NCBI RefSeq assembly: GCF_021026295.1
Contig: NZ_JAJNDA010000014.1
Span: forward strand, 62,001-126,000
Length of the DNA stretch: 64,000 nucleotides
Direction: 5' to 3'
DNA from: Actinomycetospora soli
GTDB lineage: Bacteria; Actinomycetota; Actinomycetes; Mycobacteriales; Pseudonocardiaceae
The notes under the pieces are model-generated. The model was not told where the DNA came from and searched no databases. It saw nothing but the letters and a program-made list of their open reading frames with translations. A program made the position numbers and the translations under genes. This document shows, piece after piece, positions 8,388 through 57,120 of this stretch (position 1 is the stretch's first letter; each line of letters opens with the position of its first letter).

Positions 8388-9100
8388 GGCTCGATCAGGG
8401 CCGCGAGCCCGTCGAGCACGCGCGCCGTCCCGAACGCCCACGCGGCGTCGGGGTGGCGCGCGCTGCGCTGCGCCTCGCCGGCCGCGGCGCCCACCCGCGT
8501 GGCCAGCGGGTACGACGACGGGTCCAGCACCTCGGCGAGGGCCGGCCCGGCCGCCGCCCACCACGCCTCGTCCCCGGCCGGATCGGAGCGCGACTCGGTG
8601 CGCGCGGCCGCCGCCACGAAGTCCAGCACGAACGTCAGCGCCGCGTCGCGGTCGACGTCCGACAGACCGCACCCGTCGAAGGCGGCGAGCTCGTGCTCGT
8701 ACTTCGCCGTCGTGCCCGGTCCCGGCACCGGTCGACCCGGGTCGACCGCGCCGACCCACGGGTGCGCCCGGAACACCGCGCGGTTGGTGTCCATCACCGC
8801 GCGCACCCGGTCCCGCCAGCCCTCCGCGCCGAACTCGCGCCGCTCCATCGTCCGGAACGCGTGGTCGACGAGCAGGTCGACGAGTTCGGCCTTCCCCGGG
8901 ACGTAGGTGTAGAGCGTCATCGGGGCGACGCCGAGATCGGCGGCGAGCGCGCGCATCGTCAGGGGCTCCAGCCCGTACGCGTCCGCGAGGCGGGTGGCCG
9001 CCCCGACGACGGCGTCCAGCGTCAGGCCGCGCGCCGGACCGCGGCGCGACGGGGCCGCCGTCCGCCAGAGCAGCGGGATCAGGCGCGCAGGATCGACCAC
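8384..9100 (-). CDS. TetR family transcriptional regulator
   Basis: A 238-aa repressor using GTG 9100 (reading VVDPARLIPLLWRT). The HTH is in LTLDAVVGAATRLADAYG followed by TMRALAADLGVAPMTLYTYV at about residues 30-75; the rest is a tetracycline-repressor-type C-terminal ligand domain (ARTESRSDPAGDEAWW, SYPLATRVG). An upstream in-frame ATG (9163) would place the start beyond the palindromic operator and inside the divergent VOC gene, so it is rejected. Likely represses itself and the VOC-GNAT-kinase-DUF3037 operon. Inducer unknown. Confidence 0.85.
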   Translation of the reverse strand: MVDPARLIPLLWRTAAPSRRGPARGLTLDAVVGAATRLADAYGLEPLTMRALAADLGVAPMTLYTYVPGKAELVDLLVDHAFRTMERREFGAEGWRDRVRAVMDTNRAVFRAHPWVGAVDPGRPVPGPGTTAKYEHELAAFDGCGLSDVDRDAALTFVLDFVAAAARTESRSDPAGDEAWWAAAGPALAEVLDPSSYPLATRVGAAAGEAQRSARHPDAAWAFGTARVLDGLAALIEP

Positions 9101-9103
9101 GTA

Positions 9104-9121
9104 GTACACCGTACTGTGTAC
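9104..9121. promoter_or_regulatory. Putative TetR operator GTACAC-N6-GTGTAC
   Basis: Perfect 6-bp inverted arms (9104-9109 and 9116-9121) around CGTACT, embedded in a locally AT-richer stretch, lying between the divergent starts of the TetR gene (9100) and the VOC gene (9132). Position and symmetry fit a TetR-family dimer site controlling both directions. Inference from position; no binding data. Confidence 0.65.
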
Positions 9122-9131
9122 GCTGTACGGG

Positions 9132-9533
9132 GTGAACGTCACCGCCACCGCCGTCAGCCTCACCGTCGCCGACCCCGCTGCCTCGGCCCGCTTCCTCGTC
9201 GACCACTACGGGTTCACCGAGGTGATGAGCGTGCCCGGCAGCGTCCACTCGCTGACGCGGGAGGACGCCGGCGTCAACGTCGTCTACCTCGCGACCGGGC
9301 TGCCGACGATGCCGCCCGAGCAGCGCGACGTGACCGCGCAGGGCCTGATCCTCGCGTTCGTCGTCGACGACCTGGAGGGCGAGCTGGCCCGGCTGCAGGG
9401 CGAGGGCGTCGAGATCACGATGCCGCTGACGGTCGAGGAGTGGGGCGAGCGCGCGTTCCAGACCCGCGACCCCAACGGCGTGGTGGTCCAGCTCGTCGAC
9501 TGGAACGGGGTGGGCGCGACAATGGACGCATGA
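9132..9533 (+). CDS. VOC/glyoxalase superfamily protein
   Basis: A 133-aa single vicinal-oxygen-chelate protein made of two beta-alpha-beta-beta-beta units: VSLTVADPAASARFLVDHYGF at the start, VNVVYLATG, a second unit ILAFVVDDLEGELARLQGEG, and the typical ending FQTRDPNGVVVQLVDW. Many such proteins are resistance proteins (bleomycin/fosfomycin type) or small dioxygenases; the substrate is not readable. First gene of a tightly packed operon (ATGA junction with the GNAT gene) facing a TetR regulator across a palindromic operator. Confidence 0.85.
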   Translation: MNVTATAVSLTVADPAASARFLVDHYGFTEVMSVPGSVHSLTREDAGVNVVYLATGLPTMPPEQRDVTAQGLILAFVVDDLEGELARLQGEGVEITMPLTVEEWGERAFQTRDPNGVVVQLVDWNGVGATMDA

Positions 9534-10033
9534 CCGTCCCGACGATCACGCTCCACGACGCCCGTCCCGACACCGAGCCCGGCCTCGGGGCGCTGCGCGG
9601 CTACGTCGGCGACGTGATCGGTCGGATGAACGGGCGCCCGGCGACGGACGAGGAGATCGACGCCTTCGTCGCCGAGAGCCCGCACGGCGGCCTGGTGCCG
9701 CCCGAGGGCGTGTTCGTGCTGGCCCTCGGTGGCGAGGACACGGTGCTCGGCTGCGCCGGGCTGCGGTTCGCCGGTCCCGGCGTGCCCGACGACGCCGCGG
9801 AGATCAAGCGGATGTGGACCGACCCGACCGCGCGCGGGCTCGGCGTCGGGAAGACCCTCCTGGCCGACCTGCTGGCGCGGGCCCGGGAGGCCGGCCGTGC
9901 GCGGGTCGTCCTCGACACCCGTGCCGACCTCGTGGAGGCGCGCACGCTCTACGAGCGGCACGGGTTCGTCGAGGTGGCGCCGTACAACGACAACCCGTAC
10001 GCCCAGGTCTGGTACGCCCTGGACCTGCGGTGA
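9530..10033 (+). CDS. GNAT family N-acetyltransferase
   Basis: A 167-aa acetyltransferase. The acetyl-CoA loop is EIKRMWTDPTARGLGVGKTLLADLL (motif A) and the C-terminal part is VLDTRADLVEARTLYERHGFVEV. Start ATG 9530 overlaps the VOC stop codon; the stop overlaps the next gene's GTG (10030). Second gene of the TetR-controlled operon. Acceptor substrate unknown; small-molecule GNATs with ARTLYERHGF are common in actinobacteria. Confidence 0.88.
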   Translation: MTVPTITLHDARPDTEPGLGALRGYVGDVIGRMNGRPATDEEIDAFVAESPHGGLVPPEGVFVLALGGEDTVLGCAGLRFAGPGVPDDAAEIKRMWTDPTARGLGVGKTLLADLLARAREAGRARVVLDTRADLVEARTLYERHGFVEVAPYNDNPYAQVWYALDLR

Positions 10034-10782
10034 GGCGGGTCGTCGCGACCCGCTACGTGACGCCGCTGCGCGAGGGCGGGTCGCTGCCCGGGTTGGTCGA
10101 GGCGGACGACCTCGGCACCTACGTCGTCAAGTTCACCGGCGCGGGGCAGGGCGTGAAGGCGCTGGTCGCGGAGGTCGTCGCGGGCGGGATCGGCCGTGCG
10201 CTCGGACTGCGGGTGCCCGAGCTCGTCGTCGTGGAACTGGACCCCGTGGTGGCGCAGTCGGAACCGGACTGGGAGGTCCAGGAGCTGCTCGCGCGCTCCG
10301 GCGGCGACAACCTCGGCATGGACTTCCTGCCGGGCGCGCTGGGGTTCGACCCGGTGGCGCACGCGGTCTCCGCAGAGGAGGCGGCGCGGATCCTGTGGTT
10401 CGACGCCTTCGTCGAGAACGTCGACCGCTCCTGGCGCAACCCCAACCTGCTGCGCTGGCACCGCGACCTCTGGTGCATCGACCACGGCGCCTGCCTGTAC
10501 TTCCACCACTCCTGGGCGCGCGCGGCCGCCGTCGTCGCGCGGCCGTACGACGCGTCCGACCACGTGCTCCGGCCCTTCACGACGGCGGGTGCGCGGGCTG
10601 CGGCGGACGCGTCGTCGTCGGCCCTGGTGACCCCCGACCTGCTCGCCGGCGTGGTCGCCGAGGTGCCCGACGACTGGCTCGTCGGAGGCTTCGACGCCGA
10701 CTTCCCGACGGCGGGTGACGCGCGGTCGGCGTACGTCGAGCACCTGCTGGCGCGCGTGGCGGAGCGGTCGTGGGCACCGTGA
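10030..10782 (+). CDS. HipA-like kinase (HipA_2 family)
   Basis: A 250-aa protein of the short HipA-related kinase family that lacks the HipA N-terminal subdomain. Seen: VVKFTGAGQGVKALVAEVVAGG (ATP-binding strand with K), catalytic-loop-like FDAFVENVDRSWRNPNLL, and the metal-binding CIDHGACLYF equivalent to DFG. GTG 10030 overlaps the GNAT stop (GTGA). It is followed, with a 13-bp overlap, by a DUF3037 gene; this kinase/DUF3037 pair recurs widely in bacteria with no assigned role. Whether it phosphorylates a protein, as HipA does with GltX, is not known. Confidence 0.82.
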   Translation: MRRVVATRYVTPLREGGSLPGLVEADDLGTYVVKFTGAGQGVKALVAEVVAGGIGRALGLRVPELVVVELDPVVAQSEPDWEVQELLARSGGDNLGMDFLPGALGFDPVAHAVSAEEAARILWFDAFVENVDRSWRNPNLLRWHRDLWCIDHGACLYFHHSWARAAAVVARPYDASDHVLRPFTTAGARAAADASSSALVTPDLLAGVVAEVPDDWLVGGFDADFPTAGDARSAYVEHLLARVAERSWAP

Positions 10783-41991: not shown

Positions 41992-43338
41992 ATGGCAGGC
42001 GCAGCAGCACGGGTGGTCCGCGCGGCGAGCAGGTTCGTGGACGGGGCGCTCCCCGTGCGCATCCGCGCGTGGGACGGCAGCGAGGCGGGGGCGAGCCGCG
42101 CGTCCGGTGCCCCCGTCGTCGTCCTGGCGCACCGCCGGGCCCTGCGGCGCCTGCTGTGGCAGCCGGGCGAGATGGGCCTGGCCCACGCGTACGTCTCGGG
42201 CGACCTCGACGTCGAGGGCGACCTGCAGGAGGGCCTCACCGCGATCTGGGGCCTCGTCCGCGACGGCGCGGTGCGGCCCCGCCGGCCCGGCGTCACCGAG
42301 CTCCCCGCCGTCCTCGCGGGGGCGGCGACGCTCGGGCTGCTCGGTCCGCGGCCCGCGGCGCCGCCCGAGGCGATCCGGCTCCCGCGGTTCGCGAAGCTGC
42401 ACTCCCAGCTGCGCGACCGGGCGGTGATCCACCACCACTACGACGCCGGCAACGACTTCTACGAGCTCATCCTCGACCGGAACATGGCGTACTCGTCGGG
42501 GTACTGGACCGACCTCGCCGCGCCGCTCACCGCGGAGAACCTCGTCGCCGCGCAGGACGCCAAGCTCGACATGATCTGCCGCAAGCTCGGGCTCGGTCCG
42601 GGCTCCACCCTGCTCGACGTGGGCTGCGGCTGGGGCTCCCTGCCCATCCACGCCGCGAAGCACTTCGGCGCCCACGTGCGGGGCGTGACCATCGCGACCG
42701 AGCAGCGCGACCACATCAACCAGCGGATCCGGGCCGAGGGCCTGGCCGACAAGGTGCAGGTCGACCTGATCGACTACCGCGACGTGCCCACCCAGATCGA
42801 GGAGTACGGCGCGTTCGACGCGGTCTCGAGCATCGAGATGGGCGAGCACGTCGGCGACGGGAACTACCCGACGTTCGCCTCGATCCTGTTCGGCGCGGTG
42901 CGCCCCGGTGGGCGCGCGCTCGTGCAGCAGATGTCCCGCCGTCCCGGCGACCACCCCGGCGGCGGGCCGTTCATCGAGACCTACGTGACCCCGGACATGG
43001 TGATGCGCCCCGTCGGGGACACGCTCACGCTGCTCCAGCGGGCCGGCCTCGAGGTGCGCGACGTCCACGTCATGCGGGAGCACTACGTGCCGACCTGCCG
43101 CGCCTGGATCGCCACGCTCGAGGCGAACTGGGACCGCGCGGTGGAGCTGGCGGGGGAGCGGGGCGCCCGGATGTGGCGGCTCTACCTCGTGGGCGCCGCG
43201 CTCGCGTTCGAGGAGAACCGGATGGGCGTCGACCAGATCCTGCTGGCCCGCCCGACGGCGACCGGACGCTCGGGGATGCCCGCGACGCGCGCCACGTTCG
43301 AACCGTCGGCGCAGAACGTGGGTACTCCCGCGTCATGA
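41992..43338 (+). CDS. Cyclopropane-fatty-acyl-phospholipid synthase family methyltransferase
   Basis: A 448-aa enzyme: N-terminal lipid-interaction domain (LLWQPGEMGLAHAYVSGDLDVEGDL), then HHHYDAGNDFYELILDRNMAYSSGYW, SAM motif LLDVGCGWGS, VTIATEQRD and SIEMGEHVG. Methylates the double bond of unsaturated phospholipid acyl chains to give cyclopropane or methyl-branched chains. ATG 41992 has GGGAGGA upstream. Overlaps the DUF1295 gene (ATGA). See also the FAD/DUF1365 pair at 48.1-50.1 kb. Confidence 0.92.
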   Translation: MAGAAARVVRAASRFVDGALPVRIRAWDGSEAGASRASGAPVVVLAHRRALRRLLWQPGEMGLAHAYVSGDLDVEGDLQEGLTAIWGLVRDGAVRPRRPGVTELPAVLAGAATLGLLGPRPAAPPEAIRLPRFAKLHSQLRDRAVIHHHYDAGNDFYELILDRNMAYSSGYWTDLAAPLTAENLVAAQDAKLDMICRKLGLGPGSTLLDVGCGWGSLPIHAAKHFGAHVRGVTIATEQRDHINQRIRAEGLADKVQVDLIDYRDVPTQIEEYGAFDAVSSIEMGEHVGDGNYPTFASILFGAVRPGGRALVQQMSRRPGDHPGGGPFIETYVTPDMVMRPVGDTLTLLQRAGLEVRDVHVMREHYVPTCRAWIATLEANWDRAVELAGERGARMWRLYLVGAALAFEENRMGVDQILLARPTATGRSGMPATRATFEPSAQNVGTPAS

Positions 43339-44159
43339 GCTTCGACTGGGCGGCCGCCGGCATCCTGCTGGCGGTCGCGGTCGGCGTCGTCGTCGTGACC
43401 TTCGCGGTGACGCTGCTGGTGGCACGCGCGGTGGGGAAGCACTCGGTCGTCGACGTGACGTGGGGGCTGGGGTTCGCCCTCGTCGCCGTGTCCGCGTACG
43501 TGACGTCGGGCCTGCTCGGGGTCGGGAACGACACGGTGCGGCTCGTGGCCCTGCTGCTGCCGGTGATCTGGGGCCTGCGGCTCGCGATCTACATCGGGTG
43601 GCGCAACCACGGGAAGGGCGAGGACCCGCGCTACACGGAGATGCTCGGGGAGGGGCACGCGCCGGGCGCGACGACGTGGACCGTCGTCCGCAAGGTCTAC
43701 CTCACCCAGGCCTGCGTGCAGCTCGTGGTCGTGCTGCCCGTGCTCGCGGCGATGGTGCGCGCCTCGACGGTCCCCGTGCTGCTGGTCCTCGGCGCGCTCG
43801 TCTGGCTCGTCGGGTTCTTCTTCGAGTCGGTCGGCGACGCCCAGCTCGCGCGGTTCAAGGCGAACCCGGAGAACCGGGGCCGCATCCTCGACTCGGGACT
43901 CTGGCGCTACACGCGGCACCCGAACTACTTCGGCGACTTCTGCGTCTGGTGGGGCATCTTCCTGGTGGCGGTCGGACACCCGGCGGGGCTCGTCACCGTC
44001 GTCGGGCCGCTGCTGATGAGCTATCTGCTCGTCAACGTGACCGGCAAGGAGCTGACGGAGAAGGGGATGTCCGACCGGCCCGGATACGCCGAGTACGTCG
44101 AGCGCACCAGCGGGTTCTTCCCGCTGCCGCCCGGTTCCGCCCCCGCCCGCGCGACCTGA
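43335..44159 (+). CDS. DUF1295 domain-containing membrane protein
   Basis: A 274-aa protein with about seven hydrophobic spans and the DUF1295/steroid-5-alpha-reductase-like signature: VDVTWGLGFALVAV, WRNHGKGEDPRYTEM, and SGLWRYTRHPNYFGDFCVWWGIFLV near residue 185-210, then GKELTEKGMSDRPGYAEYVERTS. Family members are commonly next to cyclopropane synthases and are thought to reduce or methylate lipid intermediates. Coupled to the upstream methyltransferase. Confidence 0.9.
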   Translation: MSFDWAAAGILLAVAVGVVVVTFAVTLLVARAVGKHSVVDVTWGLGFALVAVSAYVTSGLLGVGNDTVRLVALLLPVIWGLRLAIYIGWRNHGKGEDPRYTEMLGEGHAPGATTWTVVRKVYLTQACVQLVVVLPVLAAMVRASTVPVLLVLGALVWLVGFFFESVGDAQLARFKANPENRGRILDSGLWRYTRHPNYFGDFCVWWGIFLVAVGHPAGLVTVVGPLLMSYLLVNVTGKELTEKGMSDRPGYAEYVERTSGFFPLPPGSAPARAT

Positions 44160-48128: not shown

Positions 48129-49373
48129 GTGTCCCGTGACCGTGTCGCCGTGATCGGGGCCGGGGTGTCCGGCCTGACGGCCGCCTACGTCCTGCAGCGG
48201 GCCCACGACGTCACGCTCTTCGAGGCCGAGTCCCGGCTCGGCGGGCACGCGCACACCCACGACCTGCCGACCGTCAGCGTCGACTCGGGCTTCATCGTCC
48301 ACAACCACGCGACCTACCCGAACCTCATCCGGCTGTTCGGCGAGCTCGGCGTCGCCACGCAGGACTCCGAGATGTCGATGAGCGTGCGCGACGAGTCGAC
48401 CGGGCTCGAGTACGCCGGGGCCCGCGGGGCGGCCGGACTGTTCGCCCAGAGGCGGAACCTCGCGAACCCGCGCCACCTCGCGATGCTCGCCGAGGTGCTG
48501 CGCTTCCATCGCGCCGCCCGCCGGGTGCTCGCGGGGCACACCGACCTGGACGACGAGGTCACGCTCGGCGAGTTCCTGCGCCGGCACCGCTTCTCGCGCT
48601 ACTTCGTGGACACGTTCGCGGTGCCGGTGGTGTCGGCGGTGTGGTCCTCGGGCGCGGAGCTGTCGATGCAGTACCCGGCGCGCTACCTGTTCGCCTTCCT
48701 GGCGAACCACGGGCTGCTCTCCGTGGGCGGCTCGCACCAATGGAAGACCGTGGTCGGCGGGTCGGCGCGCTACGTGGAGAAGGCCGCGAAGGGGCTGTCG
48801 GCGGTCGAGGTGTCGACGCCGGTGCGTGCCGTGGCGCGGGTCGGGGAGGGCTTCGAGGTCCGTGACGACGCGGACGTGGCCCACGCGTTCGACCGGGTCG
48901 TGATCGCCACGCACGCGCCGACCGCCCTGTCGATGCTGGCCGCGCCGACCGCGGACGAGACCGCCGTGCTGGGTGCCTTCGAGTACTCGGCCAACGAGAC
49001 GTGGCTGCACACCGACACCTCGATCCTCCCGACCGCCCCGGATGCGCGGGCGTCGTGGAACCTGCTGCGGGTGCCCGGCGACGACCGCGTGCTGGTCAGC
49101 TACGACATGACGCGCCTGATGCGGCTCGACACCCCCGAGACCTACGTCGTCACCCTCAACGCGACCGACCGGGTCGACCCGTCGACGGTGATCGCGCGGA
49201 TGGACTACGAGCACCCCGCCTACACGCCCGCGTCGGTGGCGGCGCAGAAGCGGCTGCCCGGGCTGAACGACGGCCGGATCGCCTTCGCCGGGGCCTACCA
49301 CGGCTGGGGCTTCCACGAGGACGGCTGTGCCTCGGGGGTGCGGGCCGCCGCCTCGCTCGGGGTGACGTGGTGA
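48129..49373 (+). CDS. FAD-dependent amine-oxidase-like oxidoreductase
   Basis: A 414-aa flavoprotein: GAGVSGLTAAYVLQRAHDVTLFEAESRLGGHAHTHDL (FAD-binding GxGxxG and GGHA), SGFIVHNHATYPNLIRLF, STPVRAVARV, RVVIATHAPTALSML and the C-terminal FAD loop FAGAYHGWGFHEDGCASGVRAA. This subfamily is the usual neighbour of DUF1365 and cyclopropane synthases and is linked in other bacteria to modified fatty acids. Stop overlaps the DUF1365 start (GTGA). Confidence 0.9.
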   Translation: MSRDRVAVIGAGVSGLTAAYVLQRAHDVTLFEAESRLGGHAHTHDLPTVSVDSGFIVHNHATYPNLIRLFGELGVATQDSEMSMSVRDESTGLEYAGARGAAGLFAQRRNLANPRHLAMLAEVLRFHRAARRVLAGHTDLDDEVTLGEFLRRHRFSRYFVDTFAVPVVSAVWSSGAELSMQYPARYLFAFLANHGLLSVGGSHQWKTVVGGSARYVEKAAKGLSAVEVSTPVRAVARVGEGFEVRDDADVAHAFDRVVIATHAPTALSMLAAPTADETAVLGAFEYSANETWLHTDTSILPTAPDARASWNLLRVPGDDRVLVSYDMTRLMRLDTPETYVVTLNATDRVDPSTVIARMDYEHPAYTPASVAAQKRLPGLNDGRIAFAGAYHGWGFHEDGCASGVRAAASLGVTW

Positions 49374-50104
49374 CGTCCCTCTACGACGTCCTGGTGGAGC
49401 ACCGGCGGTCGCAGACGCTGCAGGACGCCTTCACCCACCGCATGTACCTGTGGCTGGTCGACCTGGACGATCTGCCGTCGTACCCGGGCGTGTCCTTCCG
49501 AGGCGCCGACCACCTCGGCGACCCCGACCGCTCCATCCGCGAGAACCTCGACGCGTTCCTCGCCGCGCAGGGCCGCGAGCGCCCGGCGCGGGTGCTGATG
49601 CTCGCCCACCCGCGGACGTTCGGGTACGTGTTCAACCCGATCTCGTTGTACTGGGCGTACGCGGCGACGGGGGAGCTGTCCGCGGTCGTCGCCGAGGTCC
49701 ACAACACCTACGGCGGCCGGCACCACTACCTGCTCGACGTGGACGGGGCCGGCCGCGCGCGGGTGGACAAGGACTTCTACGTCTCGCCGTTCTTCCCGGT
49801 CGACGGGGAGTACCGGATGAAGGTGCCGGAGCCGGGCGGGACGCTGGCGGCCACCGTGGTGCTGCGGCGGTCGGCGCCCGAGGGCGGGCTCGCGACGGCG
49901 TTCGTCGCGACGATGCGGGGGACCCGCCGTCCGGCCACCCGCCGGGCGGTGCTCCGCGCCGTGCTGCGGCACCCGTTCGTCACGCACCGGGTCTCGCTCG
50001 CCATCCGTCGTCGCGGGATCGCGCTGTACCTGCGCGGGCTGCCCGTCGTGACCCGCACGGCCGCGGACGTCGACCGCGGGCTGGGTCAGCTCGAGCGGGT
50101 CTGA
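49370..50104 (+). CDS. DUF1365 domain-containing protein
   Basis: A 244-aa protein: LVEHRRSQTLQDAFTHRMYLWLVDLDDLP, MLAHPRTFGYVFNPISLYWAYA, AEVHNTYGGRHHYLL and KDFYVSPFFPVDGEYRM, the complete DUF1365 signature. Function not established; nearly always beside the FAD amine oxidase and a CFA-type methyltransferase. GTG 49370 is coupled to the oxidase gene. The CFA synthase itself lies at 42-43 kb. Confidence 0.92.
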   Translation: MTSLYDVLVEHRRSQTLQDAFTHRMYLWLVDLDDLPSYPGVSFRGADHLGDPDRSIRENLDAFLAAQGRERPARVLMLAHPRTFGYVFNPISLYWAYAATGELSAVVAEVHNTYGGRHHYLLDVDGAGRARVDKDFYVSPFFPVDGEYRMKVPEPGGTLAATVVLRRSAPEGGLATAFVATMRGTRRPATRRAVLRAVLRHPFVTHRVSLAIRRRGIALYLRGLPVVTRTAADVDRGLGQLERV

Positions 50105-51549: not shown

Positions 51550-51571
51550 GTTGACACCAAGTCGTGTCAAC
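51550..51571. promoter_or_regulatory. Putative TetR operator GTTGACAC-N6-GTGTCAAC
   Basis: Perfect 8-bp inverted arms around CAAGTC, 7 bp upstream of the small ORF at 51579. The same layout (TTGACAC-N6-GTGTC) occurs at 54281-54298 upstream of the TetR gene, so one repressor likely controls both promoters. Confidence 0.75.
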
Positions 51572-51578
51572 TACGAGC

Positions 51579-51728
51579 ATGCCCGTCGTGGCGTGCTGCG
51601 TGGCTCTGGGTCTGGTGGTCGCGGTCGTCCGTGACGTCCTGCATCGGCTGGTCCCGGGCACGGCGCCCGTGCAGGTCGGCTTCGCCCCGCCGGCCCGGCG
51701 TCCGGCGCCGTCCGAGGGGGCCCGATGA
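51579..51728 (+). CDS. Small membrane protein (49 aa)
   Basis: ATG 51579 opens a 50-codon frame: a hydrophobic N-terminal half (MPVVACCVALGLVVAVV) likely spanning the membrane, then a basic/proline tail ending PSEGAR. Its TGA overlaps the ATG of the LDI-like gene (ATGA at 51725-51728), which indicates coupling. It sits right after the operator. Two adjacent cysteines (C6, C7) are in the hydrophobic part. Family not recognised. Confidence 0.6.
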   Translation: MPVVACCVALGLVVAVVRDVLHRLVPGTAPVQVGFAPPARRPAPSEGAR

Positions 51729-53641
51729 GCACCGCGACCGGCCGCACCACGACGGTCCTGCTGCCCGAGGTCCCCGCGTTCGCGCCCGTCACCGCCCGCC
51801 GGATGCGCCGCGCGCTCGCCGTGTACGGCGTGGTCTGGCTCGTCGGGTCTCTGCCGGGCTGGGTCGGCGCCGGGCCGGTCGTGACGACGCTCGGGCTGGG
51901 GCTCGTCGTGCCCGGTGGCGGGTTCGTGGCGACCGGCTCGCCGGTGCTCGCCGCGGTCGCGGCGGCGGCGTTCGTGGTGTCGCTGCTGGTCTGGTGGTAC
52001 GCGGGCCCGGTCGTCCTGCCGCCGCTGGTCTGGCTCCTGGCGGCGGGTGTCGCGCCGCTCGCGTCCGCGGGCGGCGTCGAGCCGTGGGCGCCGGTCGCGG
52101 TCCCGGCGGCGGTCGTCGTCGCGCCGGCGCTCGCCTTCGTCGTCCACCGGGTGCGGCACGCCGGGCAGCGCCGCCGTGGGCGGGCGATCAACGCCGAGCT
52201 CGCGCGCGTCCGGTTCGCGGTCGGGGGCCCTCCGGACCTCACGAGCGCGCTCCCCGTCGCCGAGAGCTCCCCGGAGGACCTCGCGCACCTGCGGTACTCC
52301 CTCGACGTCGCCCTCCAGCCGGTCGACGGCTTCGACGGGCTCGTGGTGCTCGAGCAGTACCGCGAGGGCGCGCTGCGCTACCAGCTGACGGCGCTCGGCG
52401 ACGGCATCGCGATGTCGCAGTACACCCGCACCCCGGCGTTCTCCGGCTACGTCGCCGAGGCCCAGCGCAACGCGATCGAGAAGATGCTGCTGCGCAGGGT
52501 CTGGGGCTACTGGCGCACCGAGAACCTGTGGGGCAACCTCTCGACGAACCGCGACCCGTTCGACACCGACGAGAACATCATGCTCACCGGGTGGCACGGG
52601 ACGATGGTGGGCCTCTACGAGCTGCTCAACGACGACCGCTACTCGCGGCCGGGCGCCCTGACCTACCGCTGGTCCGACGACGAGGCCTACGCGCACGACT
52701 TCCCCGCGCTCGCCCGTCAGCTGCACGGCGGGATGTCCCGCTCGGACTACGCCCTGATCCCGTGCGAGCCGAACTGGATCTACACGGTCTGCAACGCCTT
52801 CGGGATCACCGCGCTGCTCGCGCACGACCGGGCGCGCGGCACGGCGTTGTTCGAGGACGTCCGGGACCGGCTGCACCACGCCTACGAGCACGAGTTCCTG
52901 CGCCCGGACGGGCGGATCGTCGGCGTCCGGGCCCGGCACCTCGGCCTGTCGTGGAACTTCTGGGCGGGCGCGGCCGTCGCGCTCAACACCACCTACTGGC
53001 TCCACCCCGCGTTCCCCGACCTGGCCCAGCGCACCTGGTGGCTGCTGCGCCGCACCGGGCTCGCGCTGCGGGACGGACGACCGCAGCTGCCGCCCCGCCT
53101 GGTCAACCGCCTCGACCCGGGCTACTACACGCTGGGCCGGGACACGTTCGGCCAGGTCGCGATCACGATGGCCGCGCGGGAGATCGGTGACGAGGAGATG
53201 GCGGACGCGGCCGCGACGCTGCTCGCCGAGCGGGAGGGCGTCGAGGAGAGCCACGGCGCCCGGCGGATCGCGGGCGTCTCCCCGATGGTGAACTTCTACG
53301 CCGTCCTCGGACGCTTCGGGCGTCCGCACGGGCTGCGGGACCTGGTCGGCCACGGCGCGGTCCCGGCGGCCTGGCGGACCGGACCACGCCTGGCCGGGGC
53401 GGCGTATCCCGAGGTCCTCGTGGCCCGGGCGCTCACCGACGGCGACGCGCTCGACCTGGTGCTGCGGCCGGGCGCCGGACCCGTGCGCACCACGCTCGCC
53501 GTCGACCGGCTCGTGCCCGGCCGGTGCTACGCCGTCTCCGGGGCGGCCGCGGGGGAGGTCGTCGCGGACGACGCGGGCCGCGCACACGTCGAGGTCGATC
53601 TCGGTGACCGGCGCGAGGTGCGCCTCCACCCGCGGGCGTGA
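51725..53641 (+). CDS. Membrane protein with linalool dehydratase/isomerase (LDI)-like domain
   Basis: A 638-aa protein: four or five hydrophobic spans at about 30-140, then an alpha/alpha-barrel catalytic-type domain. RRVWGYWRTENLWGN, DENIMLTGWHGTMVGLYELLNDDRYS and IPCEPNWIYTVCNAFG align by eye with linalool dehydratase/isomerase (LinD) of Castellaniella; C347 and C356 keep the nine-residue spacing of the LinD active-site cysteine pair, while the LinD histidine region is shifted by one (H291). LinD is soluble/periplasmic without the membrane part. Likely hydrates, dehydrates or isomerises an isoprenoid, but activity is inference. Operon of the small ORF; TetR gene follows convergently. Confidence 0.75.
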   Translation: MSTATGRTTTVLLPEVPAFAPVTARRMRRALAVYGVVWLVGSLPGWVGAGPVVTTLGLGLVVPGGGFVATGSPVLAAVAAAAFVVSLLVWWYAGPVVLPPLVWLLAAGVAPLASAGGVEPWAPVAVPAAVVVAPALAFVVHRVRHAGQRRRGRAINAELARVRFAVGGPPDLTSALPVAESSPEDLAHLRYSLDVALQPVDGFDGLVVLEQYREGALRYQLTALGDGIAMSQYTRTPAFSGYVAEAQRNAIEKMLLRRVWGYWRTENLWGNLSTNRDPFDTDENIMLTGWHGTMVGLYELLNDDRYSRPGALTYRWSDDEAYAHDFPALARQLHGGMSRSDYALIPCEPNWIYTVCNAFGITALLAHDRARGTALFEDVRDRLHHAYEHEFLRPDGRIVGVRARHLGLSWNFWAGAAVALNTTYWLHPAFPDLAQRTWWLLRRTGLALRDGRPQLPPRLVNRLDPGYYTLGRDTFGQVAITMAAREIGDEEMADAAATLLAEREGVEESHGARRIAGVSPMVNFYAVLGRFGRPHGLRDLVGHGAVPAAWRTGPRLAGAAYPEVLVARALTDGDALDLVLRPGAGPVRTTLAVDRLVPGRCYAVSGAAAGEVVADDAGRAHVEVDLGDRREVRLHPRA

Positions 53642-53648
53642 GGTCCGG

Positions 53649-54269
53649 TCAGCGTCGCGGACGCAGCGGCGCGCAGGCCGCGATGCCGACGGCCGCGAGG
53701 TGGGACACGAGGGCCTCGTCGGCGATCGGCAGGTCGTGCAGCGCCCGCCGGTCGACCACCTCGGTCACCCCGGCCACGAGCGTCAGCAGGGTGACGGCGG
53801 GGTCCTGCCCGCTGGCCGGATCGGCCGCGAGCTCGCCGGACAGGGCGGCCACGAACTCGTCGATCACCCCGTGCCGCCGCGACCGCAGCGTCGCGTGGGC
53901 GGGCGCCTCGGCCCACAGACGCGCCCAGCCGCGGTCCGCCGCGAGGGCGGTGAGCACGGACCGCACGACGACGCGGATGCGGTCCTCGAGCTCCGGCGGC
54001 GCGTCGGCGAGGGCGGTCCGCAGTGCGGTGCGCAGTGCGGCCGTGGCGTCGTCGAACACCGCGACGAGCAGGGCGTCGAGCCCGGAGAAGCTCTCGTAGA
54101 AGTAGCGCTTGGTCAGCTCCGCCCGGGTGCACACGCCGTCGACCGACAGGCCCGTCGAGCCCTGCTCGGCGATCAGCCCCCGCGTCGCGTCCAGGAGCCG
54201 CGTCCGGCGCGCGGCCGTGCGTTCGGCCGCGCTCACCCCGCGATGCGGTCGTGTCACACCCGGTGCCAT
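53649..54269 (-). CDS. TetR family transcriptional regulator of the LDI/MpaB locus
   Basis: A 206-aa repressor: TRLLDATRGLIAEQGSTGLSVDGVCTRAELTKRYFYESFSG (TetR HTH), VRSVLTALAADRGWARLWAEAPAHA and a helical C-terminus. Start taken at ATG 54269 (MAPGVTRPHRG); a GTG at 54287 lies inside the operator, and GTG 54236 is a further alternative. It lies between the two genes it probably controls and beside one of the two matching operators. Confidence 0.85.
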   Translation of the reverse strand: MAPGVTRPHRGVSAAERTAARRTRLLDATRGLIAEQGSTGLSVDGVCTRAELTKRYFYESFSGLDALLVAVFDDATAALRTALRTALADAPPELEDRIRVVVRSVLTALAADRGWARLWAEAPAHATLRSRRHGVIDEFVAALSGELAADPASGQDPAVTLLTLVAGVTEVVDRRALHDLPIADEALVSHLAAVGIAACAPLRPRR

Positions 54270-54280
54270 CGGGAGCCATC

Positions 54281-54298
54281 TTGACACGGCTCCGTGTC
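54281..54298. promoter_or_regulatory. Putative TetR operator TTGACAC-N6-GTGTC
   Basis: TTGACAC GGCTCC GTGTC at 54281-54298, also readable as GACACGG-CT-CCGTGTC with perfect 7-bp arms. Same half-site and spacing as 51550-51571. A further half-site TGACACG lies at 54318. It sits between the divergent TetR and MpaB-type genes. Confidence 0.75.
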
Positions 54299-54352
54299 CG
54301 GAGCAGGGTGCAAAGCTGACACGAAACCGTTCCTACTTTGTGCGGAGGCGGC

Positions 54353-55213
54353 ATGCGTTGGGTCCTGGGCGCGACGGAGCGCCACCGGCTCACCACGCTC
54401 GACCCGGAGCGCGACCACACCGAGATCGCGCGGACGAGCCTGGAGACCCTGCACGGACACCGGGCGCTCGTGCTGGCGATGTTCACGGTGTCGTTCATGA
54501 AGCAGGTCGCCGTCCCGACCATGGGCCGCATCCTGTGGCGGCGGGGCACCGGCGACATCATCACGGACACCGCGGGTCGCAACGACGACACCATCGTCTT
54601 CTTCGGCCGCTTCCTCGAGCACGGCCCGGACTCCCCGGAGGGCATCCGGTGGATCGAGCGGCTCAACGCGATCCACGCGCACTTCCCGATCCGGGACGAG
54701 GACTCGCTCTACACCCTCGGCACGCTCGCCCTCGACCCCGAGCAGATCGCGGCCGGCCTCGGGGCCCGCCCCTTCACCCGGGTCGAGCTCGAGGGACAGT
54801 GGCGGTTCTGGCGGGCGGTGGCCGTCCGGCAGCACCTGCGGGACATCCCGGGCAGCCGGGAGGAGCTCCGCACGTGGATGCACCGGTACGAGGAGCAGGA
54901 GTTCGCGCCGAGCGAGGCCGGACGGGCGGTGGCGGACGCGCTCGTGGAGGACTTCTCGCGCCGGGTCCTGCCGGCGCCGCTGCGTCCCTTCGGGCCGGAG
55001 GTCCTGGCGGCGATCTCCCCGGAGAACCTCCGGGTCACGCACGGGCTGCCCCGACCCCGGCCGGCCGTCACCGCCGCCGTGCGGGCGGTCGGGCGGGCCT
55101 ACCTCGACGGGGTCGCCGTGCGGCCGGTCCCGCGCGACCGCTCACTGGTCACCCTGTTCGACCGCCGCGGCGGCGCCTCCGGCCCCGACCGGCTCGGGTA
55201 CCGCAGCGTCTGA
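54353..55213 (+). CDS. Oxygenase MpaB/Lcp-type (DUF2236) family protein
   Basis: A 286-aa mainly helical protein of the MpaB/rubber-oxygenase superfamily: TLHGHRALVLAMFTVSFMKQVAVPTMGRILWRRGTGDI, RNDDTIVFFGRFLEHG, ERLNAIHAHFPIRDEDSLYTLGTLALDP and EGQWRFWRAVAVRQHLRDIP. The family includes fungal MpaB (cleaves a farnesyl chain) and Lcp (cleaves polyisoprene), both heme-dependent; H in NAIHAHFPI is a candidate ligand. ATG 54353 follows GGAGG. Divergent from its TetR regulator. Confidence 0.75.
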   Translation: MRWVLGATERHRLTTLDPERDHTEIARTSLETLHGHRALVLAMFTVSFMKQVAVPTMGRILWRRGTGDIITDTAGRNDDTIVFFGRFLEHGPDSPEGIRWIERLNAIHAHFPIRDEDSLYTLGTLALDPEQIAAGLGARPFTRVELEGQWRFWRAVAVRQHLRDIPGSREELRTWMHRYEEQEFAPSEAGRAVADALVEDFSRRVLPAPLRPFGPEVLAAISPENLRVTHGLPRPRPAVTAAVRAVGRAYLDGVAVRPVPRDRSLVTLFDRRGGASGPDRLGYRSV

Positions 55214-57120
55214 CCCGGGTCCGGGGCGGCCCGTCGTCGTGCGGTGGGATGGCGGGCATGCGCACCGTCCTCGTCGTCGGCATCGGAGCCGGCTCGCCCG
55301 GCCACCTCACGCTCGACGCCGTCGAGGCGCTCGCGTCGGTGGACGTCGTCCTGCTGCTGCACAAGCGCGGCGCCGCGGACGAGCTGACCGACGCGCGCAC
55401 CGCGCTCGCCGAGCGCTTCGCCCCGCAGGCGCGGATCGTCCGTCGGCAGGACGCGCACCGCGAGCGCGGCACGACCGAGGAGGGCCGCTACCTGCAGACG
55501 ACGCAGGAGTGGCGCGACGAGCGCCTCGCGCTCTACGAGGAGCTGATCGCCGGCGAGGTCCCCGACGGCGGGTCGGTCGCCCTGCTGGCCTGGGGGGACC
55601 CGGGCATCTACGACGGGACCGTCGACACCGTGGAGCGGATCGTCGAGCGCGGGAACGTCGACGTCGCGTGGACGGTGATCCCGGGGATCAGTGCCCCGGC
55701 GGCCCTGACCGCGGCGCACCGGGTGACGATGACCCGGACGGGACGACCCGCCGTCGTGACCCCCGCCCGGCAGGTCATCGCCGGCACCCCGGCCGAGCGT
55801 GCCGACCTCGTCGTCATGCTCGACGGGGCCGACCAGCACGGGGTCGACGCCCTGCCCGACGAGGCGACCGTCTACTGGGGCGCCTACCTGGGCACGCCCG
55901 ACGAGACGCTGATCGGCGGGCGCCTCGGCGACGTGCGGGACGAGATCCTGTCGACCCGGGCCGAGCTGCGGGAGCGCAAGGGCTGGATCATGGACACCTA
56001 CCTGGTCCGACGGGACTGAGACACTCCCCGTCGCCGCCGCTCGCCCCGCTCGCAGGCCCTGCTCCCAGCGCTCCTCCACCCGGCCGAACCGCCAGGTGGC
56101 GAGGGCGGCCGCCCAGGCGAGGACGAAGAGCCCGACGATCCAGAACCCGACGTCGTCGAGGGGCAGGGCAGCGAGCCGGGCGAGCGGTCCGTCGGTGATG
56201 CCGAGCTGGTCGACGACGATCGAGTTCAGCTCGATCAGGCCGACGACCAGCGCGACCACGACCGACAGCGACGTGATCGTGATGTTGTAGAAGACCTTGC
56301 GCACCGGGCGCATGAAGGCCCAGCCGTAGGCGAAGCACATGAACGCGCCGTCGAGCGCGTCGAAGAGGCTCATGCCCGCGGCGAAGAGGACCGGCAGGAC
56401 GAGCACGGCCCACCAGGGCAGGGTCGCGGCCGCGGCGCCGCCCGCGAGGACGAGCAGCGAGACCTCGGTGGCGGTGTCGAAACCGAGCCCGAAGAGCACG
56501 CCCACCGGGTACATGTGGCCGGGCCGGCGCACCGCCCGCGTCACGCGGCCGAGGACGCGGTTCATGAAGCCGCGCTCGTCGAGGTGGCGCTCGAGCTCGG
56601 CCTCGTCGTAGTCGCCGTGGCGCATCCGCCGGAAGATCCGCACGATCCCGACCAGGACCACGAGGTTGATCACGCCGATCAGGATCAGGAAGACGCCGCT
56701 CACGGCGGTGCCGACCAGGCCGCCGACGACCTTCAGCGGGGAGTCGTCGTCGCCGATCTGGCCGGCGACGGCGCGCACGCCGAGTCCGAGCAGCAGGACG
56801 AGGACGAACACGATCGTCGAGTGGCCGAGGGAGAACCAGAACCCGACCGTCAAGGGCCGGGGCCGGCTCCCGTCCTCGCCCCGATCGGCCAGCAGCGCGC
56901 GGGTCGTGTTGTCGATCGCCGCGATGTGGTCGGCGTCGAAGGCGTGCCGCACGCCGAGGAGGTAGGCGGTCAGGCCCACCCCGAGGCCGAACACGCCCGC
57001 GTCGCCGAGGGCGTACCGGTTCGGCGCGATCACGATGGCGAGGACGCCCCAGCCGACGACGTGGAGCAGCAGCACGAACCCGGTCATCCCGGCGACGGAA
57101 CGCTTCTCCGGCCACGACAT
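55099..57120 (-). CDS. HoxN/NixA-type nickel/cobalt transporter with abnormal antisense read-through tail
   Basis: The first 360 residues (57120 to about 56040) are a complete NiCoT permease: signature RHAFDADHIAAIDNTTR in TM2, GLGFDTATE, AGMSLFDALDGAFM, about eight spans, ending WRFGRVEERWEQGL where homologues stop. In this frame no stop occurs until 55099, adding some 310 residues opposite cobF; they are low-complexity Arg/Ala/Gly antisense sequence with no domain. Frame-alternative stops lie near 55988, so a small indel may have removed the normal end. Imports Co2+/Ni2+; Co2+ is favoured by the cobF neighbour. Confidence 0.8.
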   Translation of the reverse strand: MSWPEKRSVAGMTGFVLLLHVVGWGVLAIVIAPNRYALGDAGVFGLGVGLTAYLLGVRHAFDADHIAAIDNTTRALLADRGEDGSRPRPLTVGFWFSLGHSTIVFVLVLLLGLGVRAVAGQIGDDDSPLKVVGGLVGTAVSGVFLILIGVINLVVLVGIVRIFRRMRHGDYDEAELERHLDERGFMNRVLGRVTRAVRRPGHMYPVGVLFGLGFDTATEVSLLVLAGGAAAATLPWWAVLVLPVLFAAGMSLFDALDGAFMCFAYGWAFMRPVRKVFYNITITSLSVVVALVVGLIELNSIVVDQLGITDGPLARLAALPLDDVGFWIVGLFVLAWAAALATWRFGRVEERWEQGLRAGRAAATGSVSVPSDQVGVHDPALALPQLGPGRQDLVPHVAEAPADQRLVGRAQVGAPVDGRLVGQGVDPVLVGPVEHDDEVGTLGRGAGDDLPGGGHDGGSSRPGHRHPVRRGQGRRGTDPRDHRPRDVDVPALDDPLHGVDGPVVDARVPPGQQGDRPAVGDLAGDQLLVEREALVAPLLRRLQVAALLGRAALAVRVLPTDDPRLRGEALGERGARVGQLVRGAALVQQQDDVHRRERLDGVEREVAGRAGSDADDEDGAHARHPTARRRAAPDPGQTLRYPSRSGPEAPPRRSNRVTSERSRGTGRTATPSR
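55258..56019 (+). CDS. cobF: Precorrin-6A synthase (deacetylating)
   Basis: A 253-aa SAM methyltransferase of the tetrapyrrole methylase fold: VVGIGAGSPGHLTLDAVEAL, DVVLLLHKRG, LLAWGDPGIYDGTVDTVERIV, TVIPGISAPAALTAAHRVTMTRTG and RKGWIMDTYLVRRD. CobF performs the C-1 methylation with release of acetate in aerobic cobalamin synthesis. ATG 55258 taken (ATG 55249 also possible). No other cob genes are in the window. The stop overlaps the antisense tail of the NiCoT gene. Confidence 0.9.
   Translation: MRTVLVVGIGAGSPGHLTLDAVEALASVDVVLLLHKRGAADELTDARTALAERFAPQARIVRRQDAHRERGTTEEGRYLQTTQEWRDERLALYEELIAGEVPDGGSVALLAWGDPGIYDGTVDTVERIVERGNVDVAWTVIPGISAPAALTAAHRVTMTRTGRPAVVTPARQVIAGTPAERADLVVMLDGADQHGVDALPDEATVYWGAYLGTPDETLIGGRLGDVRDEILSTRAELRERKGWIMDTYLVRRD

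What the first reader, a model, noticed from the sequence alone, without database searches (positions are those of the whole stretch)
51550..55213. TetR-controlled LDI-like / MpaB-like locus: possible undescribed isoprenoid-modifying system
Seen: two promoters (51550-51571 and 54281-54298) carry the same TTGACAC-N6-GTGTC operator and flank a TetR gene. One drives a 49-aa membrane ORF and a 638-aa membrane protein whose C-terminal domain resembles linalool dehydratase/isomerase (CEPNWIYTVCN, cysteines nine apart). The other drives an MpaB/Lcp-like protein. Known: LinD acts on monoterpene alcohols; MpaB and Lcp cleave prenyl chains with heme. Inference: a regulated module that (de)hydrates and oxidatively cleaves an isoprenoid at the membrane.
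Basis: partly seen in the sequence, partly recalled or inferred. Interest (0 to 1): 0.85.

Follow-up and report, generated by a model that had tools for sequence, protein, structure and literature searches.

The report
Terpene-alcohol enzyme with tiny partner
A soil actinobacterium carries a switchable gene set that probably rearranges and then cuts a plant-type terpene alcohol, and beside the main enzyme sits a tiny, so far unnamed membrane protein that turns up next to most of its membrane-bound relatives.

Summary
P0001 (51725-53641) is a PF18566 protein (275.8 bits, cut-off 26.1) with the architecture of Thauera's membrane-anchored linalool isomerase LIS, so that half is not undescribed. 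The PF09995 protein (54353-55213) folds like the C=C-cleaving trans-anethole oxygenase. The two operators are real (2 found, 0.05 expected) and recur in relatives. The enzyme pair is conserved: in 17 of 80 related loci the oxygenase lies beside the LDI gene, 15 of them overlapping, and nowhere else in 951 kb of those loci.

The surprise is the "49-aa ORF": an unannotated family of small membrane proteins starting Met-X-Cys-Cys. It lies just upstream of 44 of 57 membrane-type LDI genes (window included) and just downstream of 3. In 394 genomes every match to its N-terminus, 14 places in all, lies beside an LDI gene.

Best reading: a TetR-derepressed isoprenoid-alcohol module of a membrane hydroxyl-mutase, its Cys-Cys partner and a heme alkene oxygenase. 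Substrate, heme, TetR binding and the partner's role are untested.

The parts
51551..51570 (+). Operator O1, perfect inverted repeat TTGACAC-N6-GTGTCAA upstream of the MxCC-LDI genes
   Evidence: 0 mismatches; 2 sites in window vs 0.05 expected; only 3 places in the genome; similar sites at orthologous loci
51588..51728 (+). MxCC small membrane protein, 46 aa from GTG (49 aa if ATG 51579 is used), overlapping the LDI start by 4 nt
   Evidence: no Pfam family (given from 51579)
51725..53641 (+). Membrane-anchored LDI/LIS-like protein, 638 aa: N-terminal transmembrane domain, LDI domain of (alpha/alpha)6 type, C-terminal beta domain
   Evidence: PF18566 275.8 bits; model pLDDT 92.2; the 27 best Foldseek matches are LinD chains; hydropathy windows over 1.6 within residues 52-143
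52763..52792 (+). Codons Cys347 to Cys356, aligned to the catalytic cysteine pair of LinD
   Evidence: phmmer/hmmsearch alignments to 5g1u/5hlr; role of the pair in LinD from PMC6600392 passages
53649..54269 (-). TetR-family regulator, likely start ATG 54269 (GTG 54287 possible)
   Evidence: PF00440 28.5 bits; a relative lies within a few genes of LDI in 29 of 80 related loci
54281..54300 (+). Operator O2 (2 mismatches) in the TetR-MPAB divergent promoter region
   Evidence: a pair of such sites 34-35 bp apart lies at the same place in L044, L061, L066
54316..54335 (+). Possible degenerate second copy of the operator, 35 bp from O2 (4 mismatches, tentative)
   Evidence: read from the sequence; spacing resembles L044, L061, L066
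54353..55213 (+). MPAB/TAO-like probable heme oxygenase, 286 aa; His108 (54674-54676) is the likely heme ligand
   Evidence: PF09995 49.7 bits; profile to 8s1j E 1.9e-29; Foldseek 8s1j TM 0.86, Lcp 0.59; His108 invariant in 18 of 18 rows

Best explanation
The locus is an inducible isoprenoid-alcohol module. The TetR protein represses two promoters through O1 and O2 and is probably released by a terpene-like alcohol or a product of it.

Derepression makes three proteins. (1) A membrane-anchored LDI/LIS-type enzyme moves the hydroxyl of an allylic isoprenoid alcohol between tertiary and primary positions (linalool/geraniol or a longer homologue), using the Cys347/Cys356 pair. (2) The MxCC microprotein is a dedicated partner of that enzyme, at the membrane and probably through its N-terminal cysteine pair: redox upkeep, metal binding or assembly. 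(3) The MPAB protein is a heme-b oxygenase that cuts a C=C of the same compound to carbonyl products.

Shown: families, folds, operator conservation, gene coupling, and the MxCC-LDI association. Inferred: substrate, heme, inducer, order of reactions and the chemistry of MxCC.

Rough confidence by step: LIS-type enzyme class 0.85; TetR-operator control 0.85; MxCC is a functional partner of LDI 0.85; C=C-cleaving heme oxygenase 0.75; acyclic isoprenoid substrate 0.6; MxCC as thiol/redox partner in particular 0.25.
For: LDI; 36% identity over residues 21-636 to a Thauera sp. Sel9 protein, whose gene directly follows carboxyl-transferase, biotin-carboxylase and enoyl-CoA-hydratase genes, the atuCFE-lis order published for T. 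linaloolentis (PMC4847356, passage).

MPAB; 15 of 17 pairs overlap by 4, 7 or 26 nt; 17 near, 0 elsewhere in 951,436 bases.

Operators.

MxCC: 44 of 57 membrane-type loci upstream and 3 downstream, against about 0.008 expected per locus. In 394 genomes, 12 matches to the N-terminus with the long-form profile and 13 with the short-form profile, together 14 places in 12 genomes, all beside an LDI gene (LDI positions).

Terpene context: a Steroidobacter relative lies among AtuA, alcohol dehydrogenase, CoA-ligase and aldehyde dehydrogenase genes. The third operator in the window's genome precedes an operon with NDMA-ADH, CoA ligase, ALDH, ECH, TIGR03084 and AtuA proteins.
Against: No substrate, heme or binding data. 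LinD His129 aligns with Trp290 (His291 is next), so catalysis may differ from LinD. The orthologous ADH operon of a relative (G118) lacks the operator, and the genome has four AtuA genes, so the C67 link may be chance. 63 of 80 LDI loci have no MPAB within 6 kb, so MPAB is an add-on to part of the family; in the genus, the window genome's own second copy (L042) and L045 lack it. 5 of 57 membrane-type loci show no MxCC that I can account for (L072, L124, L127, L132, L140). One of 21 retrieved MxCC relatives (P0141) has only one of the two cysteines. The genome searches scored only the best 7 or 17 candidates per genome. MxCC may be structural rather than redox.
Confidence: 0.6

Rival explanations
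1. The LDI protein is a hydratase/mutase for a non-monoterpene alcohol (sterol side chain, phytol-like or another tertiary alcohol) and MPAB acts on that compound; the module is catabolic but not for linalool-type terpenes.
For: P450-like, ADH, SCP2 and CoA-ligase genes near the third operator fit several lipophilic substrates; an LDI locus also occurs in Sterolibacteriaceae (L128); Trp290 replaces LinD His129 (alignment).
Against: The closest biochemically tested architecture is linalool isomerase; the Thauera and Steroidobacter relatives lie in atu-type clusters.
Confidence: 0.25
2. The module is biosynthetic or protective: it modifies a cell-made isoprenoid (quinone tail, carotenoid, squalene) or detoxifies terpenes without feeding catabolism.
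For: I saw no catabolic operon next to the window locus (gene calls, families); LinD is discussed as a defence enzyme in PMC4791888.
Against: Patchy presence (PF18566 in 15 of 394 genomes of the class) argues against modifying a universal lipid; atu-type catabolic neighbours in L091 and L131.
Confidence: 0.12
3. The MxCC ORF is not a protein but a leader or chance ORF between operator and LDI.
For: It is short in many loci and directly follows the operator; no strong ribosome site precedes GTG 51588 in the window.
Against: Met-X-Cys-Cys is kept from Actinomycetota to Pseudomonadota and Myxococcota (phyla); 16 of the 44 upstream forms are over 100 aa, and long forms share further conserved Asp and His residues; three lie downstream of LDI (L103, L116, L135); the L043 copy has a clear GAGGAGG.
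Confidence: 0.03

Closest known systems
Linalool isomerase LIS of Thauera linaloolentis 47Lol (PMC4791888)
   Same: Size (638 vs 644 aa), N-terminal membrane helices (model helices 21-47, 73-93, 98-116, 122-159; four helices in residues 1-139 of LIS), C-terminal LDI domain; 36% identity over full length to the Thauera sp. Sel9 protein at an equivalent atuCFE-lis position
   Different: The window gene sits with TetR and MPAB, not in an atu cluster; MxCC is directly upstream here, but about 8 kb away in the Thauera sp. Sel9 cluster; activity unknown. The T. linaloolentis sequence itself was not fetched
Linalool dehydratase/isomerase LinD/Ldi of Castellaniella defragrans
   Same: LDI fold (27 best Foldseek hits), Cys-X8-Cys pair, Met125 equivalent (Met286)
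   Different: LinD is periplasmic with a signal peptide and needs a channel-capping disulfide (C48-C101, PMC6600392 passages); P0001 has Leu256 at the second of these places, only three cysteines in all, a membrane domain and an extra C-terminal beta domain; His129 aligns with Trp290
Trans-anethole oxygenase (8s1j) and the bacterial MpaB-family heme oxygenases
   Same: Profile E 1.9e-29, TM 0.86; conserved His at the expected place
   Different: About 20% identity; coupled to an LDI gene; substrate unknown
Latex clearing protein Lcp (5o1l)
   Same: Same superfamily, TM 0.59
   Different: Lcp chains are longer (371-375 residues); Asp79 stands where Lcp has Lys167, judged only by its offset from Arg76
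Nitrile rubber oxygenase Nro1 (PMC12724181)
   Same: Actinobacterial MpaB-family protein; b-type heme indicated by its spectrum in that paper
   Different: Acts on a synthetic polymer; no LDI partner mentioned in the passages read

Membership tests
PF18566 LDI family | Profile match over curated cut-off | tested here: met
   275.8 bits vs 26.1, profile 1-314 of 318
PF18566 LDI family | LDI fold | tested here: met
   Model pLDDT 92.2; 27 best PDB hits are LinD chains, E 2.0e-10 to 1.3e-9
PF18566 LDI family | Catalytic cysteine pair | tested here: met
   Cys347/Cys356 align with the LinD pair. The 80 loci were selected on a pattern holding both cysteines, so their conservation there is circular; the loci were not selected that way, and their rows keep both
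Membrane-anchored linalool isomerase (LIS) | N-terminal transmembrane helices before the LDI domain | tested here: met
   Hydropathy windows over 1.6 within residues 52-143; GRAVY 1.14 for residues 1-145, -0.26 after; four long N-terminal helices in the model. No transmembrane predictor was run
Membrane-anchored linalool isomerase (LIS) | Homology over the full length, membrane part included | tested here: met
   36.2%, residues 21-636, E 3e-113 to the Thauera sp. Sel9 protein; the T. linaloolentis protein itself was not fetched
Membrane-anchored linalool isomerase (LIS) | Linalool/geraniol isomerase activity | not testable with these tools
   Needs an assay
LinD/Ldi type | Capping disulfide C48-C101 | tested here: not met
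   The place of the second cysteine is Leu256; P0001 has cysteines only at 347, 356, 601. The place of C48 was not located. In 9 of 81 relatives the neighbouring column (Leu255) is Cys
LinD/Ldi type | His129 in the active site (role recalled) | tested here: not met
   Aligned to Trp290; His291 is adjacent
MPAB_Lcp_cat (PF09995) | Profile match over curated cut-off | tested here: met
   49.7 bits vs 23
MPAB_Lcp_cat (PF09995) | Fold of the solved members and conserved His | tested here: met
   8s1j TM 0.86, 5o1l TM 0.59; His108 in 18 of 18 rows
MPAB_Lcp_cat (PF09995) | Binds heme b and cleaves alkenes | not testable with these tools
   Needs spectra and assays
TetR repressor with operator | TetR_N domain and palindromic operator at its own and target promoters | tested here: met
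   conserved sites
TetR repressor with operator | Protein binds the sites | not testable with these tools
   Needs footprint or EMSA
MxCC family (proposed here) | Met-X-Cys-Cys start plus hydrophobic stretch, ORF of 35 aa or more, beside an LDI gene | tested here: met
   Window 51588-51728; no Pfam model over cut-off (from 51579; for six longer relatives)

The most novel reading that the evidence does not exclude
Membrane-anchored LDI/LIS enzymes are two-component enzymes: the MxCC microprotein is a required subunit whose N-terminal cysteine pair keeps or completes the LDI active site, replacing the channel-capping disulfide that LinD has and these enzymes seem to lack. In part of the family the complex hands its product straight to a translationally coupled heme oxygenase that cuts the isoprenoid chain. 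The absence of MxCC would explain why recombinant LIS was made in the E. coli membrane but was inactive (PMC4791888).
Probability: 0.35. Interest if true: 0.87.

Novelty: new variant of a known kind. Interest (0 to 1): 0.72.

Why it matters
LinD and LIS interconvert allylic alcohols and alkenes, which interests biocatalysis. The one membrane-type enzyme that was studied, LIS, was active from its own host but not when made in E. coli (PMC4791888). A small protein that lies beside most membrane-type genes, and whose N-terminus was matched nowhere else in the genomes searched, is a simple, testable reason. The coupled heme oxygenase suggests a way to open acyclic isoprenoids that need not use the carboxylase-based Atu route. 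The TetR and its rare operator (three places in 6.5 Mb) give a way to find the inducer and hence the substrate.

Tried and rejected
Lcp/rubber cleavage: set back, because the solved relative by sequence and fold is trans-anethole oxygenase and P0002 has no hydrophobic membrane stretch; no signal-peptide test was run.

LinD as the right template: rejected in favour of LIS, since the second capping-cysteine place and His129 are not matched and P0001 has a membrane domain.

A genome-wide terpene regulon: the third operator precedes an AtuA-containing operon, but the orthologous operon in G118 has no site, and three of the five extra sites in other genomes (L166, L168, L170) had no evident link. 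Kept as a lead only. The two others adjoin a TetR and a P450 (L167, L169), and L169 also holds a soluble LDI and a SCO1-like gene.

MxCC as chance: rejected by the controls. Of the 16 'far' control hits, 10 are MTCC genes of LDI loci and 2 are the copies farther off in L091 and L131, so the background is overstated.

Recurrent ADH, ALDH, CoA-ligase, hydratase and SDR clusters within 8 kb of LDI were named by inspection and have no background control; I do not count them as evidence.

Led nowhere: single-sequence contig scan, no relative confirmed; no paper with PF18566; no paper seen on actinobacterial LDI loci or on an LDI partner protein; one search listed 15 of 1,213. Searches are the basis for saying that I found neither the LDI-MPAB pair nor MxCC in print; the library holds open-licence papers only.

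Papers: PMC4791888 abstract and section 4 read; PMC4847356, PMC12724181, PMC3774712, PMC6600392 and PMC12455561 passages only; others only as search listings. Purwani et al. 2024 seen only as a reference in PMC12724181.

Full report
WHAT IS THERE. The window lies in a 6.52 Mb actinobacterial genome; the nearest named relative of P0001 is an Actinomycetospora corticicola protein (85%). Reading left to right: operator O1 (51551-51570); a small ORF (51588-51728); the LDI gene (51725-53641); a TetR gene on the other strand (53649-54269); operator O2 (54281-54300); and the MPAB gene (54353-55213). Two sites of the palindrome with up to two mismatches are found in the window against 0.05 expected. 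The 18-base form occurs at three places in the whole genome, with none for the reversed control pattern.

THE LDI PROTEIN. It matches PF18566 at 275.8 bits, and LinD structures by sequence (E 8e-8; profile E 9e-24). AlphaFold gives mean pLDDT 92.2; the 27 best PDB matches of that model are all LinD chains. Hydropathy windows over 1.6 fall within residues 52-143, and the model has long N-terminal helices at 21-47, 73-93, 98-116 and 122-159 and a C-terminal beta domain for which the LinD chains of about 365 residues have no room. This is the plan published for linalool isomerase of Thauera: 644 aa, four helices in the first 139 residues, cytosolic LDI part (PMC4791888, section 4). A Thauera sp. 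Sel9 relative (L131) lies directly after a carboxyl-transferase, a biotin-carboxylase and an enoyl-CoA-hydratase gene, the atuCFE-lis order published for T. linaloolentis (PMC4847356 passage), and is 36% identical over residues 21-636. A Steroidobacter relative (L091) lies among biotin-carboxylase, AtuA, zinc alcohol dehydrogenase, AMP-binding CoA-ligase-type and aldehyde dehydrogenase genes. So membership in the LIS-type branch is well supported; activity is not shown.

CYSTEINES. LinD depends on four: two form a disulfide that caps the substrate channel, and two must stay reduced for catalysis (PMC6600392 passages). P0001 has only three cysteines, two of them the catalytic pair; the place of the second capping cysteine is Leu256 (the first was not located, and 9 of 81 relatives have Cys in the neighbouring column). 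In an alignment of 81 LDI proteins the catalytic pair is kept in 80 and 81 rows, but 80 of these loci were found with a pattern that includes both cysteines, so this count is circular. Rows, not so selected, keep both as well.

THE MPAB PROTEIN. PF09995 at 49.7 bits; closest solved relative trans-anethole oxygenase 8s1j (phmmer E 8e-11; profile E 1.9e-29). Model pLDDT 93.5, TM 0.86 to 8s1j and 0.59 to Lcp. His108 and Arg76 are invariant in 18 of 18 rows, 32 residues apart; the matching residues are 34 apart in Lcp and 36 in Nro1 (numbers from PMC12724181 passages). Heme is inferred.

THE PAIR IS REAL. In the best 80 of 188 GTDB loci, a P0002 relative lies within 6 kb of the LDI gene in 17. In all 17 the genes are on the same strand; 15 overlap by 4, 7 or 26 nt, and in the other two a TetR gene lies between (for L061 the TetR gene is visible). 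No P0002 hit lies elsewhere in 951,436 bases of those loci. The pair is in Pseudonocardiaceae, Nocardiaceae, Nocardioidaceae, Jatrophihabitantaceae and one Nevskiaceae (Pseudomonadota) genome; on a quick tree of 97 LDI proteins the label needs 5 changes, 4 of them forced by well-supported branches (long branches noted there). The other 63 loci have no MPAB within 6 kb, so the oxygenase is an option, not a core part. A TetR of the P0004 family lies within a few genes in 29 of the 80. Among the 20 stretches (chosen from the hits plus one operator site) MPAB adjoins LDI in five (L043, L044, L046, L052, L055).

THE OPERATOR IS CONSERVED. Sites with up to two mismatches lie near LDI in L061, L063, L065, L066, L068, L075 and L130 (7 of 80), and in L043, L044, L049 (the same site as L068), L052 and L053 of the other set; L042 and L045 have sites with three mismatches. 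Exact counts in 10 genomes: 6 have the 18-base pattern, at one to three places each, 5 of the 6 at the LDI locus; none has the reversed control. The Nocardia, Williamsia and Rhodococcus loci show no such site, so the regulator has drifted there.

THE SMALL ORF. Relatives begin Met-X-Cys-Cys followed by a hydrophobic stretch and often FAPPARRPAP. With a loose definition (start, any residue, Cys-Cys, seven of ten hydrophobic, 35 aa or more) one lies on the same strand within 1 kb upstream in 44 of 57 membrane-type loci (window included) and within 300 nt downstream in 3 more; 10 of 24 loci with short LDI matches have one upstream, and 10 others have an MTCC protein of 196-224 aa on the other strand in the same locus. 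Expected: 0.008 per locus from the rest of the same DNA, itself inflated by true members. Of the 10 membrane-type loci without a hit, two are cut off by contig ends (L089, L112), one has MLACC (L101), two carry an MGCC protein farther off (L091, L131), and five are unexplained (L072, L124, L127, L132, L140).

In 394 genomes of the class, PF18566 occurs in 15. The long-form profile gives 12 matches that start at model position 1 or 2, the short-form profile 13 (E 8.3e-6 or better); together 14 places in 12 genomes, all beside an LDI gene. Some rows of the profiles come from these very genomes (L068 and L073 in A5; the window, L074 and L078 in A4). Other matches cover only inner or C-terminal parts: with A5, six genomes without LDI (E 1.1e-8 or worse) and one stretch of G180 away from its LDI; with A4, 26 places starting at model position 4 or later (E 5.2e-5 or worse). 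Only the best 7 or 17 candidates per genome were scored. Of the 15 LDI genomes, G161, G218 and G498 gave no N-terminal match; G161 has a MACC-starting CtaG-domain protein just downstream of LDI (L059).

A search of the large protein database with the short form found 21 proteins, all unnamed or 'hypothetical', none with a Pfam domain; 20 of the 21 hold the Cys-Cys, P0141 does not. The long forms add invariant Asp146, His148 and His167 (15 rows).

A PARALLEL. The soluble LDI branch, which lacks the membrane part, has a SCO1/SenC-like Cys-X3-Cys gene within the fetched stretch in 7 of 8 loci (motif scan; L019, a fragment, lacks it; Pfam was run on one of the seven, L016). Four further soluble matches (three in G234, one in G218) were not examined. 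Two branches of LDI thus each travel with a different cysteine-pair protein. That fits a need for thiol or metal upkeep; it does not prove it.

HOW IT MOST LIKELY WORKS. A terpene-like alcohol or product lifts TetR from O1 and O2. LDI + MxCC interconvert a tertiary and a primary allylic alcohol at the membrane. MPAB cleaves a C=C of the chain, as MpaB does with a farnesyl tail (PMC12724181 passage) and TAO with anethole (PMC3774712 passages). The products feed an alcohol/aldehyde dehydrogenase and CoA-ligase route; the operon behind the third operator holds such genes, but the link is unproven: the G118 orthologue lacks the site and the genome has four AtuA genes.

NOVELTY. LIS-type membrane LDI: known since 2016. 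The coupled LDI-MPAB pair under a TetR with this operator, and the MxCC family as a frequent partner: I found neither in print (searches, open-licence papers only). The published failure to get active LIS in E. coli, full length or truncated (PMC4791888), becomes testable.

Noticed in passing
L042, about 8405-10363 (G000:C55): The genome has a second LDI gene (73% identical to P0001) with operator-like sites (three mismatches), a MACC small ORF, and TetR and DUF5134 neighbours; it carries an in-frame TAG, so it is either a pseudogene or an assembly error.
   Followed up: partly
L010, L011, L012, L013, L014, L016, L169: A soluble LDI branch without the membrane domain has a SCO1/SenC-like Cys-X3-Cys gene within the fetched stretch in 7 of 8 loci examined.
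   Followed up: partly
L041:877-9118 (G000:C67): The third genomic copy of the operator lies 264 bp upstream of an operon with SCP2, NDMA-dependent ADH, CoA ligase, ALDH, enoyl-CoA hydratase, TIGR03084 and AtuA proteins; two P450-like genes and a small ferredoxin-like gene (by inspection) lie alongside.
   Followed up: partly
L167:6219-8201 and L169:7965-12653: In two Pseudonocardia genomes the same operator also lies beside a P0004-like TetR and a 407-aa P450 (Pfam run on L169 only); in L169 a soluble LDI and a SCO1-like gene follow.
   Followed up: partly
L042, L044, L063, L123, L059: DUF5134 proteins adjoin LDI or TetR genes in L042, L044, L063 and L123; a CtaG-domain protein that itself starts MACC lies downstream of LDI in L059. 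A link to copper or heme assembly is possible.
   Followed up: no
window 42013-44159 and 48129-50104: Cyclopropane-fatty-acid-synthase-type (CMAS) gene with DUF1295, and an FAD amine-oxidase-type gene with DUF1365 nearby; looks like a fatty-acid modification set, not studied further.
   Followed up: no
window 55249-56019: Precorrin-6A synthase CobF (TIGR02434, 249.4 bits, cut-off 195.8) directly follows MPAB on the same strand; it is not among the neighbour clusters of five or more loci.
   Followed up: partly
P0141: A 49-aa protein 96% identical to the window's small ORF has AGC instead of ACC at the start of the motif; single small contig, meaning unknown.
   Followed up: no
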